Below are positions 1 through 5,881 of a stretch of DNA of 13,155 bases, piece after piece. The translations under genes and the position numbers were made by a program. This stretch comes from Candidatus Saccharimonadota bacterium (GTDB taxonomy: Bacteria; Patescibacteriota; Saccharimonadia; Saccharimonadales; UBA4665): the NCBI GenBank assembly GCA_028289265.1, contig JAQGGU010000033.1, positions 1-13,155 on the forward strand, read 5' to 3'. The notes under the pieces were generated by a model. It searched no databases and was not told the origin of the DNA. It saw only the letters and a list, made by a program, of their open reading frames with translations. The first letter of the stretch is position 1, and the number at the start of each line of letters is the position of its first letter.

Positions 1-1727
1 GCGCGGACCTGGCCGACGTATTCGACGATGAAGTCGCCCGGGAAAGTGCTTTCGAACTTTTCCTTGTTCTCGAACGGATAGTGGTGCTGCGCAAACGGCA
101 TCGAACCGGATTCAAACCAGCAGTCGATGACCTTGTCGATGCGCTTATAGTGCACGCCATCCAGGTCAAACTCGATGTCATCGACCCATGGCCGGTGATA
201 ATCGGCCAATTCTTCCCCGCTGAGTTCTTTCAATTCAGCGTACGAGCCAACTACTTTAATATGCTCATTCCCTTCAGTATCAGTCCCTTTCCAGATCGGC
301 ATGGCAGTCGCCCAGAAGCGGTCACGGCTGAGGTTCCAGTCCGGTGCCTGCTCAACGGTCTTCTGGAAGCGGCCATGCTTGATGTGCCCCGGGAACCAGT
401 TGACGTTCTCGTTTTGCTCAAGCATTTCAGAGCGCTGGCCATCAACGTCCATGAACCAACTCGGATGCGCCCGGTACATAAGCCTGTTGCCGTTGCGTAA
501 ATTGTGCGGATATTCGTGCTGAATGTAATCGATTTTCCAGACGATACCGCGCTCATGCAGCGCTTTGGCGATACTCTTGTTGTTTTCCCAGACATCGAGG
601 CCTTGCCACTCGCCCTCAGTGTATTTGCCGTACTCGTCAAGCACGTGCACCACCGGCACGTTGTTGGCGCGGGCAAGCTCGAAGTCTTCTTCACCGTAGG
701 CCGGCGACAGGTGGACGACACCGGTACCGTCTTCGGCGGAAAGGCCTGGATAGTTCCAGACCTTGTGGGCATTCTCGCCGCGCTCAACTCCGAGCAGCGG
801 CTCGTATGACAAGCCGATAAGATCCGAGCCCTTTATATTGTCGCGGATGACAGTGTGCGGCACCGGCTGGTGCTTCTGGTCGGTCAGGACCTTATCTACC
901 AGGCCGGCAAGCAATATAAAGTGCTCGCCGTTTTCCATTTCAACCTCGGCGTATAGTTCATTTTCGCCTACACCGACGGCAGTATTGCCCGGCAAGGTCC
1001 ACGGCGTGGTTGTCCAGGCCAGCAGATATACAGGTGTAGCAGCACCCTGGCTCAGGCTTTCTTGGACCGGGAAGTCTTTCAGCTTGAACTTCACATACAC
1101 ACTCGGATCGGTTACGACCTGATAAGCACCGGCATCCATGGTGACTTCAGCTTTAGAAAGTGGTGTCGCCCACTTGGTGTCATATAGAAGCACCTTTTCA
1201 CCCTCGTATATCTTGCCTTTTTCATATAGCTGCTTGAAGGCCCACCAGACTGACTCCATATAGTCCTTGTCCATAGTCTTGTAGGCACCCTTGAAATCAA
1301 CCCAGCGCCCGATACGGTCGACAGTCGATTCCCATAGGTTACCGGTTTGGATCATGCTCTCGCGGGCAGTAGAGATGTAATCTTCGAGGCTGATTTTAGT
1401 GCCAATCTCGCTGCGGTCCTGTATACCGAGCTTTTTCTCCACGAAGTTCTCTGCTGGCAGACCATGCGTGTCCCAGCCCCATACGCGCTCGACACGCTTG
1501 CCTTGCATCGTCCAGTAACGCGGCACGACATCCTTAGCGATACTTGAAAGCAGCGTCCCGTGGTGCGGCACACCAGTAATGAACGGAGGGCCGTCATAAA
1601 AGACGTATTGGTTATCCTGTGGGCGCATCTCGACAGACTTTTCAAATGTCTTGTTCTCTTTCCAGTGCTGTACGAGATCTTTTTCGTATTCGATAGCCCT
1701 GCGGCGGGTTCCTGATTTAAACTTCAT
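1..1727 (-). CDS. ileS: Isoleucyl-tRNA synthetase, N-terminal 575 codons (gene runs off the left edge)
   Basis: Class I aminoacyl-tRNA synthetase that charges tRNA-Ile in the cytoplasm. Seen: the ATG at 1727 follows an AAGGAG Shine-Dalgarno (1738-1733) by 5 nt. The Rossmann-fold start YDGPPFITGVPHHGTLL covers residues 44-60, so the HIGH signature reads HHGT (55-58). GWDTHGLPAE follows at 85-93. The inserted editing (CP1) domain shows AWTTTPWTLPGN (237-248) and GTGVVHLSPAYGEEDF (334-349). WNLSRDRFW (464-472) marks the return to the catalytic core. The KMSKS loop and anticodon-binding domain lie beyond the window. The GWDTHGLP block and editing motifs fit IleRS rather than ValRS or LeuRS, and the sequence is closer to eukaryote-like type 2 IleRS than to the E. 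coli type (from memory of the families). Around residues 408-414 the CxxC usual in many relatives is absent. A T-box leader upstream independently supports Ile. Confidence 0.96.
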   Translation of the reverse strand, partial: MKFKSGTRRRAIEYEKDLVQHWKENKTFEKSVEMRPQDNQYVFYDGPPFITGVPHHGTLLSSIAKDVVPRYWTMQGKRVERVWGWDTHGLPAENFVEKKLGIQDRSEIGTKISLEDYISTARESMIQTGNLWESTVDRIGRWVDFKGAYKTMDKDYMESVWWAFKQLYEKGKIYEGEKVLLYDTKWATPLSKAEVTMDAGAYQVVTDPSVYVKFKLKDFPVQESLSQGAATPVYLLAWTTTPWTLPGNTAVGVGENELYAEVEMENGEHFILLAGLVDKVLTDQKHQPVPHTVIRDNIKGSDLIGLSYEPLLGVERGENAHKVWNYPGLSAEDGTGVVHLSPAYGEEDFELARANNVPVVHVLDEYGKYTEGEWQGLDVWENNKSIAKALHERGIVWKIDYIQHEYPHNLRNGNRLMYRAHPSWFMDVDGQRSEMLEQNENVNWFPGHIKHGRFQKTVEQAPDWNLSRDRFWATAMPIWKGTDTEGNEHIKVVGSYAELKELSGEELADYHRPWVDDIEFDLDGVHYKRIDKVIDCWFESGSMPFAQHHYPFENKEKFESTFPGDFIVEYVGQVR

Positions 1728-1748: not shown

Positions 1749-1975
1749 AAATAAAAAGTCACCTCTTCTGTCTGTCAGAACCCGTGGACTTATGTGCCGC
1801 GGGTGGTTCCATCTGACTTCCAAAAGAGACGACTCTTGTAATGGCGCTTATTTATCAGCTATGACGGGCTGCTGCCGGCGGGGTCTACTATTACAAGCGT
1901 AATTTCTTCCCGCTCCGTATCTGTCATGCAGATTCGTGGGTGATAACCACTCAAACGGATTTACTAAATTGTTAC
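1749..1975 (-). promoter_or_regulatory. T-box riboswitch leader of ileS
   Basis: The leader RNA is expected to sense uncharged tRNA-Ile and allow read-through into ileS. Seen: an antiterminator with the standard layout. GTCAGA (1817-1812) pairs with TCTGAC (1779-1774). A 7-nt bulge UGGAACC (1811-1805) matches the T-box consensus UGGNACC. Above it ACCCGCGG (1804-1797) pairs with CCACGGGT (1787-1780), with one C-A mismatch. An alternative terminator overlaps the 3' arm. Upstream, a hairpin GTGG/CCAC (1950-1947 with 1939-1936) carries AUC, an Ile codon, in its loop (1944-1942), with possible tandem G-A pairs below. An AGTA (1966-1963) to GAA internal loop (3' side near 1910) flanked by TCCGT/ACGGA lies around it, with AUU as a second possible Ile specifier. 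Inferred: an Ile-specific T-box using transcription attenuation. The specifier-domain fold is not resolved by eye. Oddity: the bulge is UGGA, whereas A73 of tRNA-Ile would predict UGGU. Confidence 0.85.
1753..1791 (-). terminator. Intrinsic terminator of the ileS T-box leader
   Basis: On the minus strand AAGTC (1791-1787) pairs with GACTT (1760-1756), AC (1785-1784) with GT (1762-1761), and TTCTG (1780-1776) with CAGAA (1770-1766), around a loop ACAGA. C1786 is bulged and a GGG/GAG internal loop interrupts the stem. A T-run (1757-1753, then ATTT) follows. The 5' arm uses the same bases as the 3' arm of the antiterminator helix (1787-1774), so the two folds exclude each other, as in transcriptional T-boxes. 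The hairpin ends about 25 nt before the ileS start. Confidence 0.75.
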
Positions 1976-1981
1976 CCTGTT

Positions 1982-2010
1982 AGTGTACTCCAACTCATCA
2001 CTTTTGACAA
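1982..2010 (-). promoter_or_regulatory. Promoter of the ileS leader
   Basis: TTGTCA (2010-2005) and TACACT (1987-1982) are separated by exactly 17 bp, a good sigma-70-type match. The predicted start near 1975 gives a leader of about 250 nt, which contains the whole T-box. Confidence 0.7.
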
Positions 2011-2020
2011 CAATAGCCCC

Positions 2021-2290
2021 CTAGCCGGAGTAAGCGTAGGAAGCGACTTCATCCATAAGTGGCAGCATGTCGTCATTCCAAAGTTTTATCAGCCTGCCAT
2101 CTTCGGCCACAGCCAGTAACGCCGGGTAGCGCATGATTCCGTATACCTCACACTTGGCGATGCCATCTCTTTCATCAACATTGAGTGTTTCAAGACGAAT
2201 GTTGGGATTCCGCATGCTGAAATCGCGGACAAATGTCTCAATGCTTCTCGCATGCTCGGATTCTGGGCGGTAAAGGATAACCACTTTCAT
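2021..2290 (-). CDS. Small thioredoxin-fold-like protein lacking the CxxC active site
   Basis: An 89-residue protein starting MKVVILYRPESEH. I chose ATG 2290 over an in-frame ATG at 2323 because the protein then begins directly with a beta-strand and because a TGCTACAAT extended -10 lies 7 nt upstream. Seen: a strand-helix-strand start, a middle strand (LETLNVDE), then YGIMRYPALLAV, which resembles the cis-proline strand of thioredoxin folds, followed by DGRLIKLW. The usual CxxC position (residues 6-11) is RPESEH, and the only cysteine (in AKCEVYG) is outside it. Inferred: a thioredoxin-like fold without dithiol oxidoreductase chemistry, function unknown. It ends 10 bp before the ileS promoter and is transcribed in the same direction. 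Confidence 0.7.
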   Translation of the reverse strand: MKVVILYRPESEHARSIETFVRDFSMRNPNIRLETLNVDERDGIAKCEVYGIMRYPALLAVAEDGRLIKLWNDDMLPLMDEVASYAYSG

Positions 2291-3061: not shown

Positions 3062-4582
3062 TTAACTACAGCCAGTGGTGCTTCCACATGAGCTACAGAC
3101 GTAGCAGCTACCTGCCCTTTGCGTCTGGTTGCCACAGTTGTAGCAGAGAGGCGCAGTGCTATCACCGCTACCAAGCTTTGCGTCTGCCGTAGCAACGGCC
3201 GGTGCTTCGCTGACAGCTGGCGATTTCTCGGCAGCCTGATGTTCTTTCGCGGGCTTCTCGGCATCCGCAACATCGTCAGTTGTCTGCTCTGTCTCGAGCA
3301 AGCTTACCTGTTGATCGTCGAGGGGCATGTCCTCGAATGAGGCCAGACCGAGCTCAAGGCGGTCGTCGAAGCTCAGGTAGTCGAGTGCCAGGCGGCGAAC
3401 GATGTAGTCAGTGATAGAACTTGCGGTACGGATATCACTATCGTCAGTGATGCCGCTTGGCGCGAATGAAGTTCCGCGGAGTGTCTTGACGTAACTCTTC
3501 AGAGGCACGCCGTACTGCAGGCCATGGCTGACACTGATAGCGAAGGAGTCCATCAGTCCAGACAGGGTGCTTCCCTGCTTAGAGACGCTCAGGAACAGTT
3601 CGCCTGGTGCGCCATCTTCGTACTCACCGACAGTGAAGTATCCTTCAAGGTCAGCGATCTGGAACTTGTAGGTCTTACTGTTGCGGACACGAGGAAGCTT
3701 GCGGCGGACAGCGCCACGGACAATGACATGACCATTGACGGCTTCAGCTGCGGCTACTGGAGTAGTAGCAACTGGCTCATCCTTCTTATCGTCGTCTTTC
3801 TTGGCCATTGAGAGTGGCTGAGCAACCTTACAGTTATCACGGTAGATGGCGACAGCTTTCAGGCCCATCTTCCATGAGTCGATGTGTAGCTGTTCGACTT
3901 CCTCGATAGTTGCTTCTTCGGGCATGTTGACGGTCTTAGAAATAGCACCGGAGATGAATGGTTGTACGGCAGCCATCATCTTGACGTGGCCGAGGTAGTG
4001 GATAGAGTTGTCACCCATCGAGCAAGCGAAGACATTGAGGTGCTCAGCTTTGAGGGCTGGTGCGCCGATAATAGTCTTTTCGGTGTCGATGTAAGCTACG
4101 ATAGCGTCGACTTGGTCCTTGGTGTAGCCAAGAGCCTTCAAGGCGCGTGGTACGGTCTGGTTGACGATGTGCATCGTACCGCCACCGACCAATTTCTTTA
4201 CCTTTACGAGGCCAAGGTCTGGCTCGATACCGGTAGTGTCGCAGTCCATCATCAGGCCGATAGTACCAGTTGGAGCGAGTACTGAAGCCTGTGAGTTGCG
4301 TACACCGTGCAGTTCACCTTGCTCGACAGCTTCGTCCCAAGCAGTCGCAGCAGCGCTGAGGAGCTCTTCTGAGACGAGTGAGGCGTCAATGTCAGATACA
4401 GCCTCACGGTGCATCTTAAGGACATTGATCATGCCTTCGCGGTCCTTGTGGAAGCCGGTGAATGGACCAACCTTCTGAGCCATCTTGGCGCTAGTGGCGT
4501 ATGCCTGGCCTGTTAGTAGTGCTGTAATAGCAGCAGCTTGGGCGCGGCCTTCGTCGGAGTCGTATGGCAAGCCCTGAGCCAT
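3062..4582 (-). CDS. nrdJ: B12-dependent ribonucleotide reductase, C-terminal part after the in-frame stop
   Basis: Distal part of class II ribonucleotide reductase, in the same frame as the segment at 5881-4727. Homologous coding actually resumes at 4726: the codons between the TAG and ATG 4582 read on as SFIHTVELIFTAQEILVGY, a normal NrdJ sequence, so ATG 4582 (MAQGLPYDSDEGR) is a conserved internal Met and not a plausible native start. I see no Shine-Dalgarno before it. Seen in the 506-residue ORF: APTGTIGLMMDCDTTGIEPD (barrel and substrate region, residues 104-123), ISGAISKTVNMP, then a linker and a second conserved region ending with a Cys-rich tail (CYNC, CYVCSSC, GC; residues 480-505). 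In the family, tail cysteines relay electrons from thioredoxin to the active-site disulfide. Ends in TAA, followed by a strong terminator. On its own this piece lacks the radical Cys. Confidence 0.9.
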   Translation of the reverse strand: MAQGLPYDSDEGRAQAAAITALLTGQAYATSAKMAQKVGPFTGFHKDREGMINVLKMHREAVSDIDASLVSEELLSAAATAWDEAVEQGELHGVRNSQASVLAPTGTIGLMMDCDTTGIEPDLGLVKVKKLVGGGTMHIVNQTVPRALKALGYTKDQVDAIVAYIDTEKTIIGAPALKAEHLNVFACSMGDNSIHYLGHVKMMAAVQPFISGAISKTVNMPEEATIEEVEQLHIDSWKMGLKAVAIYRDNCKVAQPLSMAKKDDDKKDEPVATTPVAAAEAVNGHVIVRGAVRRKLPRVRNSKTYKFQIADLEGYFTVGEYEDGAPGELFLSVSKQGSTLSGLMDSFAISVSHGLQYGVPLKSYVKTLRGTSFAPSGITDDSDIRTASSITDYIVRRLALDYLSFDDRLELGLASFEDMPLDDQQVSLLETEQTTDDVADAEKPAKEHQAAEKSPAVSEAPAVATADAKLGSGDSTAPLCYNCGNQTQRAGSCYVCSSCGSTTGCS

Positions 4583-4726
4583 CAGGAGCGCGCCAAGGTT
4601 AGCGTAGCCGATGCCAAGCTCACGATAAGCACGGGCGTTCTTGGTGATGCTTTCTGTCGGGTAAGCGCTGTAGCCGACCAGGATTTCCTGAGCGGTAAAG
4701 ATGAGCTCAACAGTGTGGATGAACGA

Positions 4727-4729
4727 CTA
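4727..4729 (-). other. nrdJ: In-frame TAG interrupting nrdJ
   Basis: Minus-strand reading: GGC TCA TTC GAC ATT TAG TCG TTC ATC CAC ACT. Both sides are in the same frame and both match NrdJ, where this position is normally an acidic or other sense residue, so no frameshift is needed. One substitution (for example GAG to TAG) would create it. TAG is the real stop of the 89-aa and 172-aa genes, nrdR, ftsZ, ftsA, yqeY and the winged-helix gene, so general recoding of TAG is unlikely. Most probable: a nonsense mutation or a sequencing or assembly error. Read-through is possible but unsupported. Confidence 0.9.
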
Positions 4730-5881
4730 AATGTCGAATGAACCGTCGTCCTTCAAGAACTTGAGTAGGTTCAGTGAAGCCAGGTTACAAGCTGAGTTGT
4801 CGAGGTGCATGTACTCTGAACATGGGTTTGAACCGTTGATGCGGCCGGCGTTTGGCGTGGTGTGCCACTTGTTGATGACAGTATCAAATTGCATACCGGG
4901 GTCAGCGCACTTCCATGCGGCTTCTGCAAACTGGCGCATCAGGTCGCGGGCCTTAACGGTCTTTACGACGCGGCCATCCTTGACGGCCTTGAGGTCCCAG
5001 TCGGCGTCAGCTTCGACAGCCTTCATGAACTCATCGGTCACGCGAACAGAGTTGTTGGCGTTCTGGTACTGGACCGAGTAAATATCCTTGCCGTCAAGGC
5101 TCATGTCGAAGCCTGCAGCCTGCAAAGCACGGGCTTTCTCTTCTTCGCGTTCTTTTGCCCAGATGAAGTCTTCAACATCCGGGTGGTCGACGTTCAGGAT
5201 GACCATCTTGGCAGCGCGGCGGGTCTTACCGCCACTCTTGATAGCACCAGCACTTGAGTCAGCACCGCGCATGAAACTAAGGGGTCCAGAAGCAGTACCA
5301 CCGCTCTTAGAAAGAGGCTCGACGCTTGAGCGGATGCCTGAGAGGTTGATACCTGCGCCGGAACCGCCCTTAAAGATCATGCCTTCTTCAACATACCAGT
5401 TCAGGATAGATTCCATAGTGTCCTGGACGCCGAGAATAAAGCACGCACTAGCCTGCTGGGCGCGTTCTGGGGCACCGATGTTGAACCATACCGGCGAATT
5501 AAAAGCGGCACGCTGGGTTGCCAATACATACTTCAACTCTTCGCGGTAATCTTCTGCTTCAGTACCTTCAGCAAAGTAACCCTCTTGGATACCTTGGCGG
5601 ACGACAGTGTCGACTACGCGGTCAATCAGGTGCTTTAGCGATGATTCGCGCTCATCGGTGCCTGGAGTACCGGTGAAATACTTCTGTGCCACGATGTTGA
5701 TAGCGTTCATCGAGAAGCCTTCTGGAAATTCCAGGTCGCGCTGCTCGAAGACGTTCTTGCCGGTCATCGGGTTTGTGATAACAGAGTCGCGCTTGACCCA
5801 TTTCAGCTGATCATACGCCTTGGACTTCGGCTCAGTGAATAAGCGCCGTCCAGCACCAGCTTTGCTTGTTGTTTGCCCCAT
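4727..5881 (-). CDS. nrdJ: B12-dependent (class II) ribonucleotide reductase, N-terminal part up to the in-frame stop
   Basis: Adenosylcobalamin-dependent reduction of ribonucleotides to deoxyribonucleotides, oxygen-independent, cytoplasmic. Seen: start MGQTTSKAG with GGAGGGG (5896-5890) 8 nt upstream. The motif AFNSPVWFNIG is at 126-136. The first redox Cys is C147 (SACF). GGSGAGINLSGIRSS (172-186) binds substrate. The thiyl-radical motif NPCSE is at 352-356 (Cys354, Glu356). The partner redox Cys is C365 (SACNL), 11 residues after Cys354, as in Thermotoga NrdJ (from memory). Translation stops at codon 385 (TAG), deleting the rest of the ten-stranded barrel. With read-through the protein would be 939 residues, normal for the family. 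The upstream neighbour on the same strand is nrdR, 155 bp away, the expected regulator. Confidence 0.93.
   Translation of the reverse strand: MGQTTSKAGAGRRLFTEPKSKAYDQLKWVKRDSVITNPMTGKNVFEQRDLEFPEGFSMNAINIVAQKYFTGTPGTDERESSLKHLIDRVVDTVVRQGIQEGYFAEGTEAEDYREELKYVLATQRAAFNSPVWFNIGAPERAQQASACFILGVQDTMESILNWYVEEGMIFKGGSGAGINLSGIRSSVEPLSKSGGTASGPLSFMRGADSSAGAIKSGGKTRRAAKMVILNVDHPDVEDFIWAKEREEEKARALQAAGFDMSLDGKDIYSVQYQNANNSVRVTDEFMKAVEADADWDLKAVKDGRVVKTVKARDLMRQFAEAAWKCADPGMQFDTVINKWHTTPNAGRINGSNPCSEYMHLDNSACNLASLNLLKFLKDDGSFDI

What the first reader, a model, noticed from the sequence alone, without database searches (positions are those of the whole stretch)
1749..2010. A full T-box riboswitch with transcriptional terminator in front of ileS in a CPR-like genome
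Seen directly: promoter (TTGTCA-17-TACACT), a 6-bp helix, the UGGAACC bulge and an 8-bp helix exactly as in the T-box antiterminator, and a mutually exclusive terminator with a T-run 25 nt before ileS. T-boxes are best known from Firmicutes and Actinobacteria (established); one in a Patescibacteria-like genome would be notable. The specifier domain looks unusual: AUC sits in a short hairpin loop, as in ultrashort Stem I ileS T-boxes of Actinobacteria, yet an AGTA/GAA internal loop with AUU encloses it, and the attenuation is transcriptional rather than translational.
Basis: partly seen in the sequence, partly recalled or inferred. Interest (0 to 1): 0.75.

Follow-up and report, generated by a model that had tools for sequence, protein, structure and literature searches.

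The report
Saccharibacterial T-box with Stem III switch
The stretch before an essential protein-making gene in an ultrasmall bacterium looks like a tRNA-sensing RNA switch; the same kind of switch sits before this gene in most relatives examined, is missed there at the standard database threshold, and appears to flip a different part of itself than textbook versions do.

Summary
The T-box is real. A covariance model built from 30 relatives, without the window, finds it (87.8 bits, E 4e-22), although Rfam's T-box model scores only 18.3 bits (cut-off 93). The host is a saccharibacterium. Such T-boxes are found upstream of ileS at 75 of 80 related loci and in 173 of 244 genomes of the class; Rfam's cut-off passes none of the 244. 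The aptamer resembles the short-Stem-I kind of actinobacterial ileS (AUC in an apical loop, Stem II S-turn), but is joined to a transcription terminator.

The terminator's downstream strand pairs with the 3' arm of Stem III and encloses an intact antiterminator hairpin. Its 14 pairs covary. 56 of 71 classifiable ileS T-boxes fold this way, 15 canonically. Stem III is thus the likely switched element.

Similar T-boxes occur elsewhere in Patescibacteria, before valS, aspS, thrS, tyrS, lysS and others; the loop codon matches the gene in 59 of 79 (shuffled mean 1.8). Caveat: the window's UGGA cannot pair with the A73 of relatives' tRNA-Ile. No experiment was possible.

The parts
1982..2010 (-). 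sigma-70-like promoter TTGTCA-17-TACACT (predicted)
   Evidence: Consensus scan, 9 of 12 matches, 0.5 expected by shuffling
1914..1959 (-). Stem I: basal helix 1959-1955/1918-1914 with a UUGA/GA junction and an extra hairpin 1933-1929/1923-1919
   Evidence: MFE (not in the MFE of the longer stretch); the same-genus genome G097 (L319) keeps basal helix and extra hairpin, the latter longer and with one pair changed on both sides
1936..1950 (-). Specifier hairpin GUGG-UUAUCAC-CCAC
   Evidence: Aligned in 34 leaders (A1); the stem varies while pairing is kept (e.g. GUGG/CCAC, GCGG/CCGC, GCAG/CUGC)
1942..1944 (-). Specifier codon AUC (Ile) in the apical loop
   Evidence: Invariant in alignments A1 and A2; gene is ileS
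1878..1913 (-). Stem II with S-turn (AAGAA / AGUAGA)
   Evidence: Invariant or near-invariant GAA and UAGA columns in A1/A2; covered by the R2 hit
1856..1877 (-). Stem IIA/B: CGG/CCG helix, loop CAGC (1874-1871) able to pair with GCUG (1859-1856)
   Evidence: Sequence; helix in models R1/R2; the pseudoknot pairing was read by eye and not counted
1818..1849 (-). Purine motif AAGCG (1849-1845), Stem III (1844-1820), AA (1819-1818)
   Evidence: Conserved columns; RNAfold without the terminator strand; motif RRRxG-StemIII-AA described in PMC7583486 (passages)
1774..1817 (-). Antiterminator hairpin: A1 1817-1812/1779-1774, bulge UGGAACC 1811-1805, A2 1804-1780
   Evidence: A1/A2 covary, 99.5% of 400 cells paired
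1754..1837 (-). Nested terminator helix 1837-1821 with 1770-1754, enclosing the antiterminator
   Evidence: MFE (-38.9 vs -22.4 kcal/mol without the downstream strand); pair probabilities 0.38-1.00; covariation in 40 sequences
1753..1757 (-). Terminator U-run
   Evidence: Sequence
3..1727 (-). ileS (first 575 codons; runs off the window)
   Evidence: NCBIfam TIGR00392, E 1.6e-158; 529.5 bits, under the cut-off of 621.4 for the whole protein since the frame is cut

Best explanation
It is a tRNA-Ile-sensing T-box riboswitch that controls ileS by transcription attenuation. Inferred working: tRNA-Ile(GAU) pairs by its anticodon with AUC in the Stem I loop, braced by the Stem II S-turn. If the tRNA is uncharged, its 3' CCA pairs with the UGG of the bulge, the purines that flank Stem III clamp onto this joint, Stem III plus A1/A2 form one stacked unit, and polymerase reads on. 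If the tRNA is charged, the clamp fails. The newly made strand 1770-1754, which resembles the 5' arm of Stem III, then displaces that arm from the 3' arm and builds a 16-17 bp terminator with the antiterminator hairpin still folded at its tip. Shown by comparison: the anatomy, its conservation, the terminator pairing, the codon-gene match. Inferred: tRNA binding, sensing of charge, the order of events.
For: Model R2, built without the window, hits 1954-1774 (-) at 87.8 bits, E 4.2e-22. Model R1 hits the window and 75 of 80 saccharibacterial ileS loci; of the 47 loci not used to build it, 42 hit. 173 of 244 class genomes hit, 44 of 59 of the family. Terminator helix in 40 sequences: 117 cells with a change on both sides (shuffled 36.9), covariation score 0.672 (0.322), 95.2% paired against at most 64.1% when slid (these rows were chosen for pairing at 12 or more of 14 positions). 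A1/A2 covary in the same rows. Not selected for the terminator: 64 of 96 discriminators fold nested, A1 kept in all 64; of the window and 75 loci 56 are nested, 15 canonical, 5 unclassified. In 79 other T-boxes the loop codon fits the gene in 59 (Asp or Asn accepted for aspS; shuffled leaders: mean 1.8, maximum 5), and base N follows the gene: thrS UGGA 4 of 4, hisG UGGG 2 of 2, aspS UGGC 5 of 8, which for Thr and His fits U73 and C73 in the window genome's own tRNAs.
Against: The window has UGGA, but all 18 tRNA-Ile(GAU) genes found in 17 of 30 genome handles searched have A73, so the fourth bulge pair is lost; 5 of 96 discriminators, the window included, have UGGA, two of them in genomes whose tRNA-Ile is A73 (G111, G004). 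No tRNA-Ile(GAU) was found in the window's own 83%-complete genome. The window's Stem III is imperfect (3 + 5 bp with an internal loop). When the fold is extended past the start codon, the MFE no longer forms the basal and specifier helices of Stem I but pairs the 5' end with the specifier region (Stem I forms). Rfam's own model gives no significant hit. Folding energies ignore tRNA and transcription kinetics. Nothing here is experimental.
Confidence: 0.78

Rival explanations
1. Ordinary T-box with the canonical switch: the 3' strands of A1/A2 would form the 5' strand of the terminator, and the nested helix is incidental.
For: This is the textbook mechanism (PMC7583486, passages). 28 of 96 discriminators of the set and 15 of 71 classified ileS T-boxes fold that way, 13 of those 15 in one starred clade.
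Against: In the window's MFE no base downstream of A1 pairs with the A1/A2 3' strand (0 canonical pairs, 15 nested), and the nested helix has changes on both sides at 11 of 14 positions.
Confidence: 0.1
2. A degenerate T-box that no longer senses tRNA-Ile: a conserved leader with a constitutive or leaky terminator.
For: UGGA against A73, while the same-genus genome G097 (L319) has UGGU; imperfect Stem III.
Against: The other elements are present; the extra Stem I hairpin differs from that of G097 by a pairing-preserving change; G097 itself has a similarly interrupted Stem III, read by eye; UGGA recurs in 5 of 96, the window included.
Confidence: 0.12
3. Translational T-box as in Actinobacteria, the T-run being incidental.
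For: The aptamer resembles class III T-boxes, which mostly regulate translation (PMC10482949, passages). The Shine-Dalgarno-like AAGGAG (1738-1733) has pairing probabilities of 0.14-0.66.
Against: The predicted OFF helix ends in a T-run at 1757-1753; in the MFE the partners of AAGGAG lie in the stretch after the terminator helix or in the gene start, not in the T-box elements; in the 39 aligned nested relatives a T-run follows the helix at the same place.
Confidence: 0.04

Closest known systems
Class III T-boxes (Nocardia farcinica and mycobacterial ileS)
   Same: Short Stem I, AUC in an apical loop followed by A; Stem II with S-turn; IIA/B pseudoknot; ileS target
   Different: 7-nt rather than 5- or 6-nt loop as drawn here; transcription terminator instead of Shine-Dalgarno sequestrator; extra hairpin in the Stem I junction; phylum Patescibacteria (class definition from PMC10482949, passages)
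Transcriptional T-boxes of Firmicutes (class I/II, e.g. Bacillus subtilis tyrS, glyQS; Rfam RF00230)
   Same: T-box bulge, A1/A2, Stem III with flanking purines, intrinsic terminator
   Different: No long Stem I; terminator takes the 3' arm of Stem III rather than of A1/A2; 18.3 bits against RF00230
TBDB T-box collection (PMC7778990, passages)
   Same: Same family of leaders; its class II (translational) model appears to correspond to the short-Stem-I kind
   Different: That model was run on actinobacterial reference genomes and on class I hits with a truncated Stem I; the passages seen do not mention Patescibacteria. The database itself could not be opened

Membership tests
T-box riboswitch | 7-nt bulge UGGNACC between helices A1 and A2 | tested here: met
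   1811-1805; A1/A2 covary in 40 sequences
T-box riboswitch | Specifier codon matching the downstream synthetase | tested here: met
   AUC, ileS; invariant in the aligned relatives
T-box riboswitch | Base N of UGGN complementary to the tRNA discriminator base | tested here: not met
   UGGA against A73 in tRNA-Ile of relatives; own tRNA-Ile not found. 88 of 96 discriminators have UGGU. The homologous set has exceptions, so this lowers confidence in function, not in homology
T-box riboswitch | Stem II S-turn and purines flanking Stem III | tested here: met
   Conserved columns
T-box riboswitch | Stem IIA/B pseudoknot | tested here: inconclusive
   Pairing CAGC/GCUG is possible; covariation not counted
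T-box riboswitch | Rfam RF00230 gathering score (93 bits) | tested here: not met
   18.3 bits; a curated score cut-off that also passes 0 of 244 class genomes
T-box riboswitch | Response to tRNA charging | not testable with these tools
   needs in vitro transcription
Canonical T-box attenuator | Terminator mutually exclusive with antiterminator (uses A1/A2 3' strands) | tested here: not met
   MFE keeps A1 (6 of 6 pairs) inside the terminator
Class III T-box | Short Stem I, specifier in a 5- or 6-nt apical loop | tested here: inconclusive
   Short Stem I yes; loop is 7 nt with the 4-bp stem drawn
Class III T-box | Regulates translation (mostly) | tested here: not met
   Terminator and T-run predicted; 'mostly' in the source, so not strictly defining

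The most novel reading that the evidence does not exclude
Patescibacteria carry a phylum-wide set of short-Stem-I T-boxes for several amino acids, many joined to transcription terminators. In the main saccharibacterial design Stem III is itself the switch: its 3' arm is exchanged between its own 5' arm and a near-copy of that arm downstream, while the tRNA holds the 5' arm in place through the flanking purine latch. The antiterminator never has to melt.
Probability: 0.6. Interest if true: 0.82.

Novelty: new variant of a known kind. Interest (0 to 1): 0.7.

Why it matters
It would show tRNA-sensing attenuation in a phylum of reduced, host-dependent bacteria for which the searches made here found no report, in a form that the standard Rfam threshold misses in this class. 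It would separate the class III aptamer from translational control. And it would give Stem III a direct, testable role as the exchanged strand: a 2018 study calls its function unclear (PMC6197855, passages), while a 2020 review makes it part of the charge-sensing domain but not of the terminator (PMC7583486, passages). Nested and canonical designs within one class are a natural comparison.

Tried and rejected
Rfam at gathering and E-value thresholds: too insensitive for this form. Upper Stem II was left out of the models because MAFFT did not align it consistently, the pseudoknot because the models cannot hold one. The idea that UGGA matches the cognate tRNA was dropped; two of the 17 handles there, G242 and G587, have identical coordinates and are probably one genome. 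As an outside control, exact AGGGTGGTACCGCG in viral contigs gave 56 stretches, mostly chance: of 55 with enough flank 48 have no T-run, 6 fold canonical, 1 mixed, 0 nested, and 20 of the 56 scanned with Rfam gave no hit. A better control, 20 of the higher-scoring Rfam-type T-boxes in other Patescibacteria (12 of the 13 over the cut-off and 8 of the next best): 12 canonical, 1 nested, 3 mixed, 4 without a recognised motif. Stem III pairing (333 of 342 cells) was fitted per sequence for register, so it is not used as covariation evidence. The automatic specifier rule was shaped while looking at some of these loci; its shuffle control is. The strand comparison used 53 of 96 rows (43 distinct pairs of strands) with at least 10 of 14 pairs; one search used 40 with at least 12 of 14; counts without that selection are. 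Literature: ten searches; (T-box and riboswitch with Saccharibacteria, candidate phyla radiation, Patescibacteria, Parcubacteria) found no paper; subscription journals and preprints are mostly not held.

Full report
What was checked. The finding lies on the minus strand, between a promoter-like site at 2010-1982 and ileS, which starts at 1727 (NCBIfam TIGR00392, E 1.6e-158). The leader folds better than 200 of 200 shuffles (z -3.64). Rfam's T-box model finds nothing at its gathering score, 18.3 bits, E 0.064, over its full length when only 501 bases are searched, and nothing in the window's own genome at E 0.001.

Relatives. Printed leaders showed the same plan in many. An alignment of 34 (window and 33 loci) gave model R1, which hits the window (103.1 bits) and 75 of the 80 loci; L010, L025, L058, L064 and L065 have none and L005 is cut off at the contig end. 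Of the 47 loci not used for training, 42 hit. A second model, R2, from 30 relatives without the window, finds the window at 87.8 bits, E 4.2e-22, and nothing else in it up to E 10.

Distribution. R1 matches 173 of 244 genomes of the class at E 0.01, 44 of 59 of the family, and 137 of 379 across the phylum; 104 of those 137 lie outside the class by my count of the listing. RF00230 has a match at E 1 in 76 of 244 class genomes but 0 over its cut-off; across the phylum 131 of 379 at E 0.01, 13 over the cut-off, none of these 13 in the window's class. So gathering-threshold annotation does not see the saccharibacterial form, though it sees some T-boxes elsewhere in the phylum. These scans use stricter filters that lose weak matches, as the outputs say.

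Anatomy. The specifier AUC sits in the loop of GUGG-UUAUCAC-CCAC, followed by A, much as in class III T-boxes (PMC10482949 and PMC7583486, passages). Stem II has the GAA/AGUA S-turn, then a short helix with a possible pseudoknot, the purines AAGCG, Stem III, AA, A1, UGGAACC and A2. Between the junction purines and the 3' strand of the basal Stem I helix the window has an extra hairpin; the same-genus genome G097 has one at the same place, longer and with one pair changed on both sides (L319). The helices of Stem I are in the MFE; when the fold is extended past the start codon the MFE pairs the 5' end with the specifier region instead.

The switch. In the published model the 3' strands of A1 and A2 become the terminator's 5' strand and A1 is sheared (PMC7583486, passages). 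In the window the MFE keeps A1 whole inside a helix made of 1837-1821, that is Stem III's 3' arm with its loop and the inner part of its 5' arm, and 1770-1754 next to the T-run (-38.9 kcal/mol; -22.4 without the downstream strand; again). Of 96 distinct discriminator segments (nearly all from the class), 64 fold nested, all with A1 kept, 28 canonical, 4 otherwise. Of 76 ileS T-boxes (window and 75 loci), 56 are nested, 15 canonical and 5 were not classified because no UGGNACC-like motif was found; 13 of the 15 canonical ones fall in one starred clade of 14 rows, several of whose records come from rumen or gut (titles). On an alignment of 40 nested sequences, chosen for pairing at 12 or more of 14 positions, the helix has 117 cells with changes on both sides against 36.9 in shuffles, and 95.2% of cells paired against at most 64.1% for slid versions; A1/A2 covary in the same rows. 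So both helices are kept at once, and what the terminator excludes is Stem III.

Generality. 82 further T-box hits, outside the class or second hits within it, were inspected. Of 30 downstream proteins tested, 26 are aminoacyl-tRNA synthetases (Ile, Val, Asp/Asn, Thr, Arg, Tyr, Lys, Leu; some cut and under the curated cut-off), one is HisG, one NAD(P)H-hydrate dehydratase and two have no family; the other genes were labelled by similarity to these. With an automatic rule the loop codon fits the gene in 60 of 82, or 59 of the 79 with a labelled synthetase or hisG gene; shuffled leaders give 1.8 on average, at most 5, and permuted gene labels 19.8, at most 32. Both hisG leaders are misses of the rule. 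Base N of UGGN is A in 4 of 4 thrS, G in 2 of 2 hisG, C in 5 of 8 aspS, U in 33 of 35 ileS and 21 of 25 valS leaders; U73 in tRNA-Thr, C73 in tRNA-His and A73 in tRNA-Val of the window's own genome fit. Terminators in 78 of these 82: 39 canonical, 25 nested, 5 mixed, 9 not classifiable. So outside the class the canonical design is the commoner one.

What does not fit. Among the 96 discriminators N is U in 88, A in 5 (the window, L033, L151, L156, L157), C in 2, G in 1. All 18 tRNA-Ile(GAU) genes found in 17 of 30 genome handles have A73, including those of L151 (G111), L157 (G004) and L006 (G586, UGGC). So the window either makes do with three pairs, or is weakened, or has an unusual tRNA-Ile that its incomplete genome does not show. 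Its Stem III is interrupted, as that of G097 also looks by eye.

Verdict. A homologue of T-boxes by descent and anatomy, with an aptamer like that of class III, a predicted transcriptional output, and a terminator that displaces Stem III instead of the antiterminator. Sensing of tRNA charge is inferred from the family, not shown. I file it as a new variant of a known kind.

Noticed in passing
window 3062-5881 (-): nrdJ (vitamin B12-dependent ribonucleotide reductase) is interrupted by one in-frame TAG at 4729-4727; the same frame continues into the second half. Sequencing error, pseudogene or real is not known.
   Followed up: partly
L311, L313 (G150, G045, same family as the window): T-box-like leaders with UGGG before hisG (L311 by NCBIfam, L313 by similarity), fitting the C73 of tRNA-His: a possible histidine-sensing T-box in Saccharibacteria. 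The automatic codon rule did not find a His codon.
   Followed up: partly
L114, L115, L130 (G034, G005, G019, another family of the class): Second T-box hit of the genome, before a nondiscriminating aspS, with GAC in a 6-nt loop (L115 and L130 read by eye) and UGGC.
   Followed up: partly
L013, L022, L028, L039, L044, L051, L055 and others: The T-box lies 230-1200 nt before ileS; in some a small gene seems to lie between.
   Followed up: no
L385, L386, L389 (other Patescibacteria): Rfam-type T-boxes also seem to precede genes other than synthetases: argininosuccinate synthase-like (L385, L389) and sulfate adenylyltransferase-like (L386) proteins, named by eye only.
   Followed up: no
window 2021-2290 (-): Small protein just upstream of the T-box promoter, glutaredoxin-like by eye; no NCBIfam match.
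   Followed up: no
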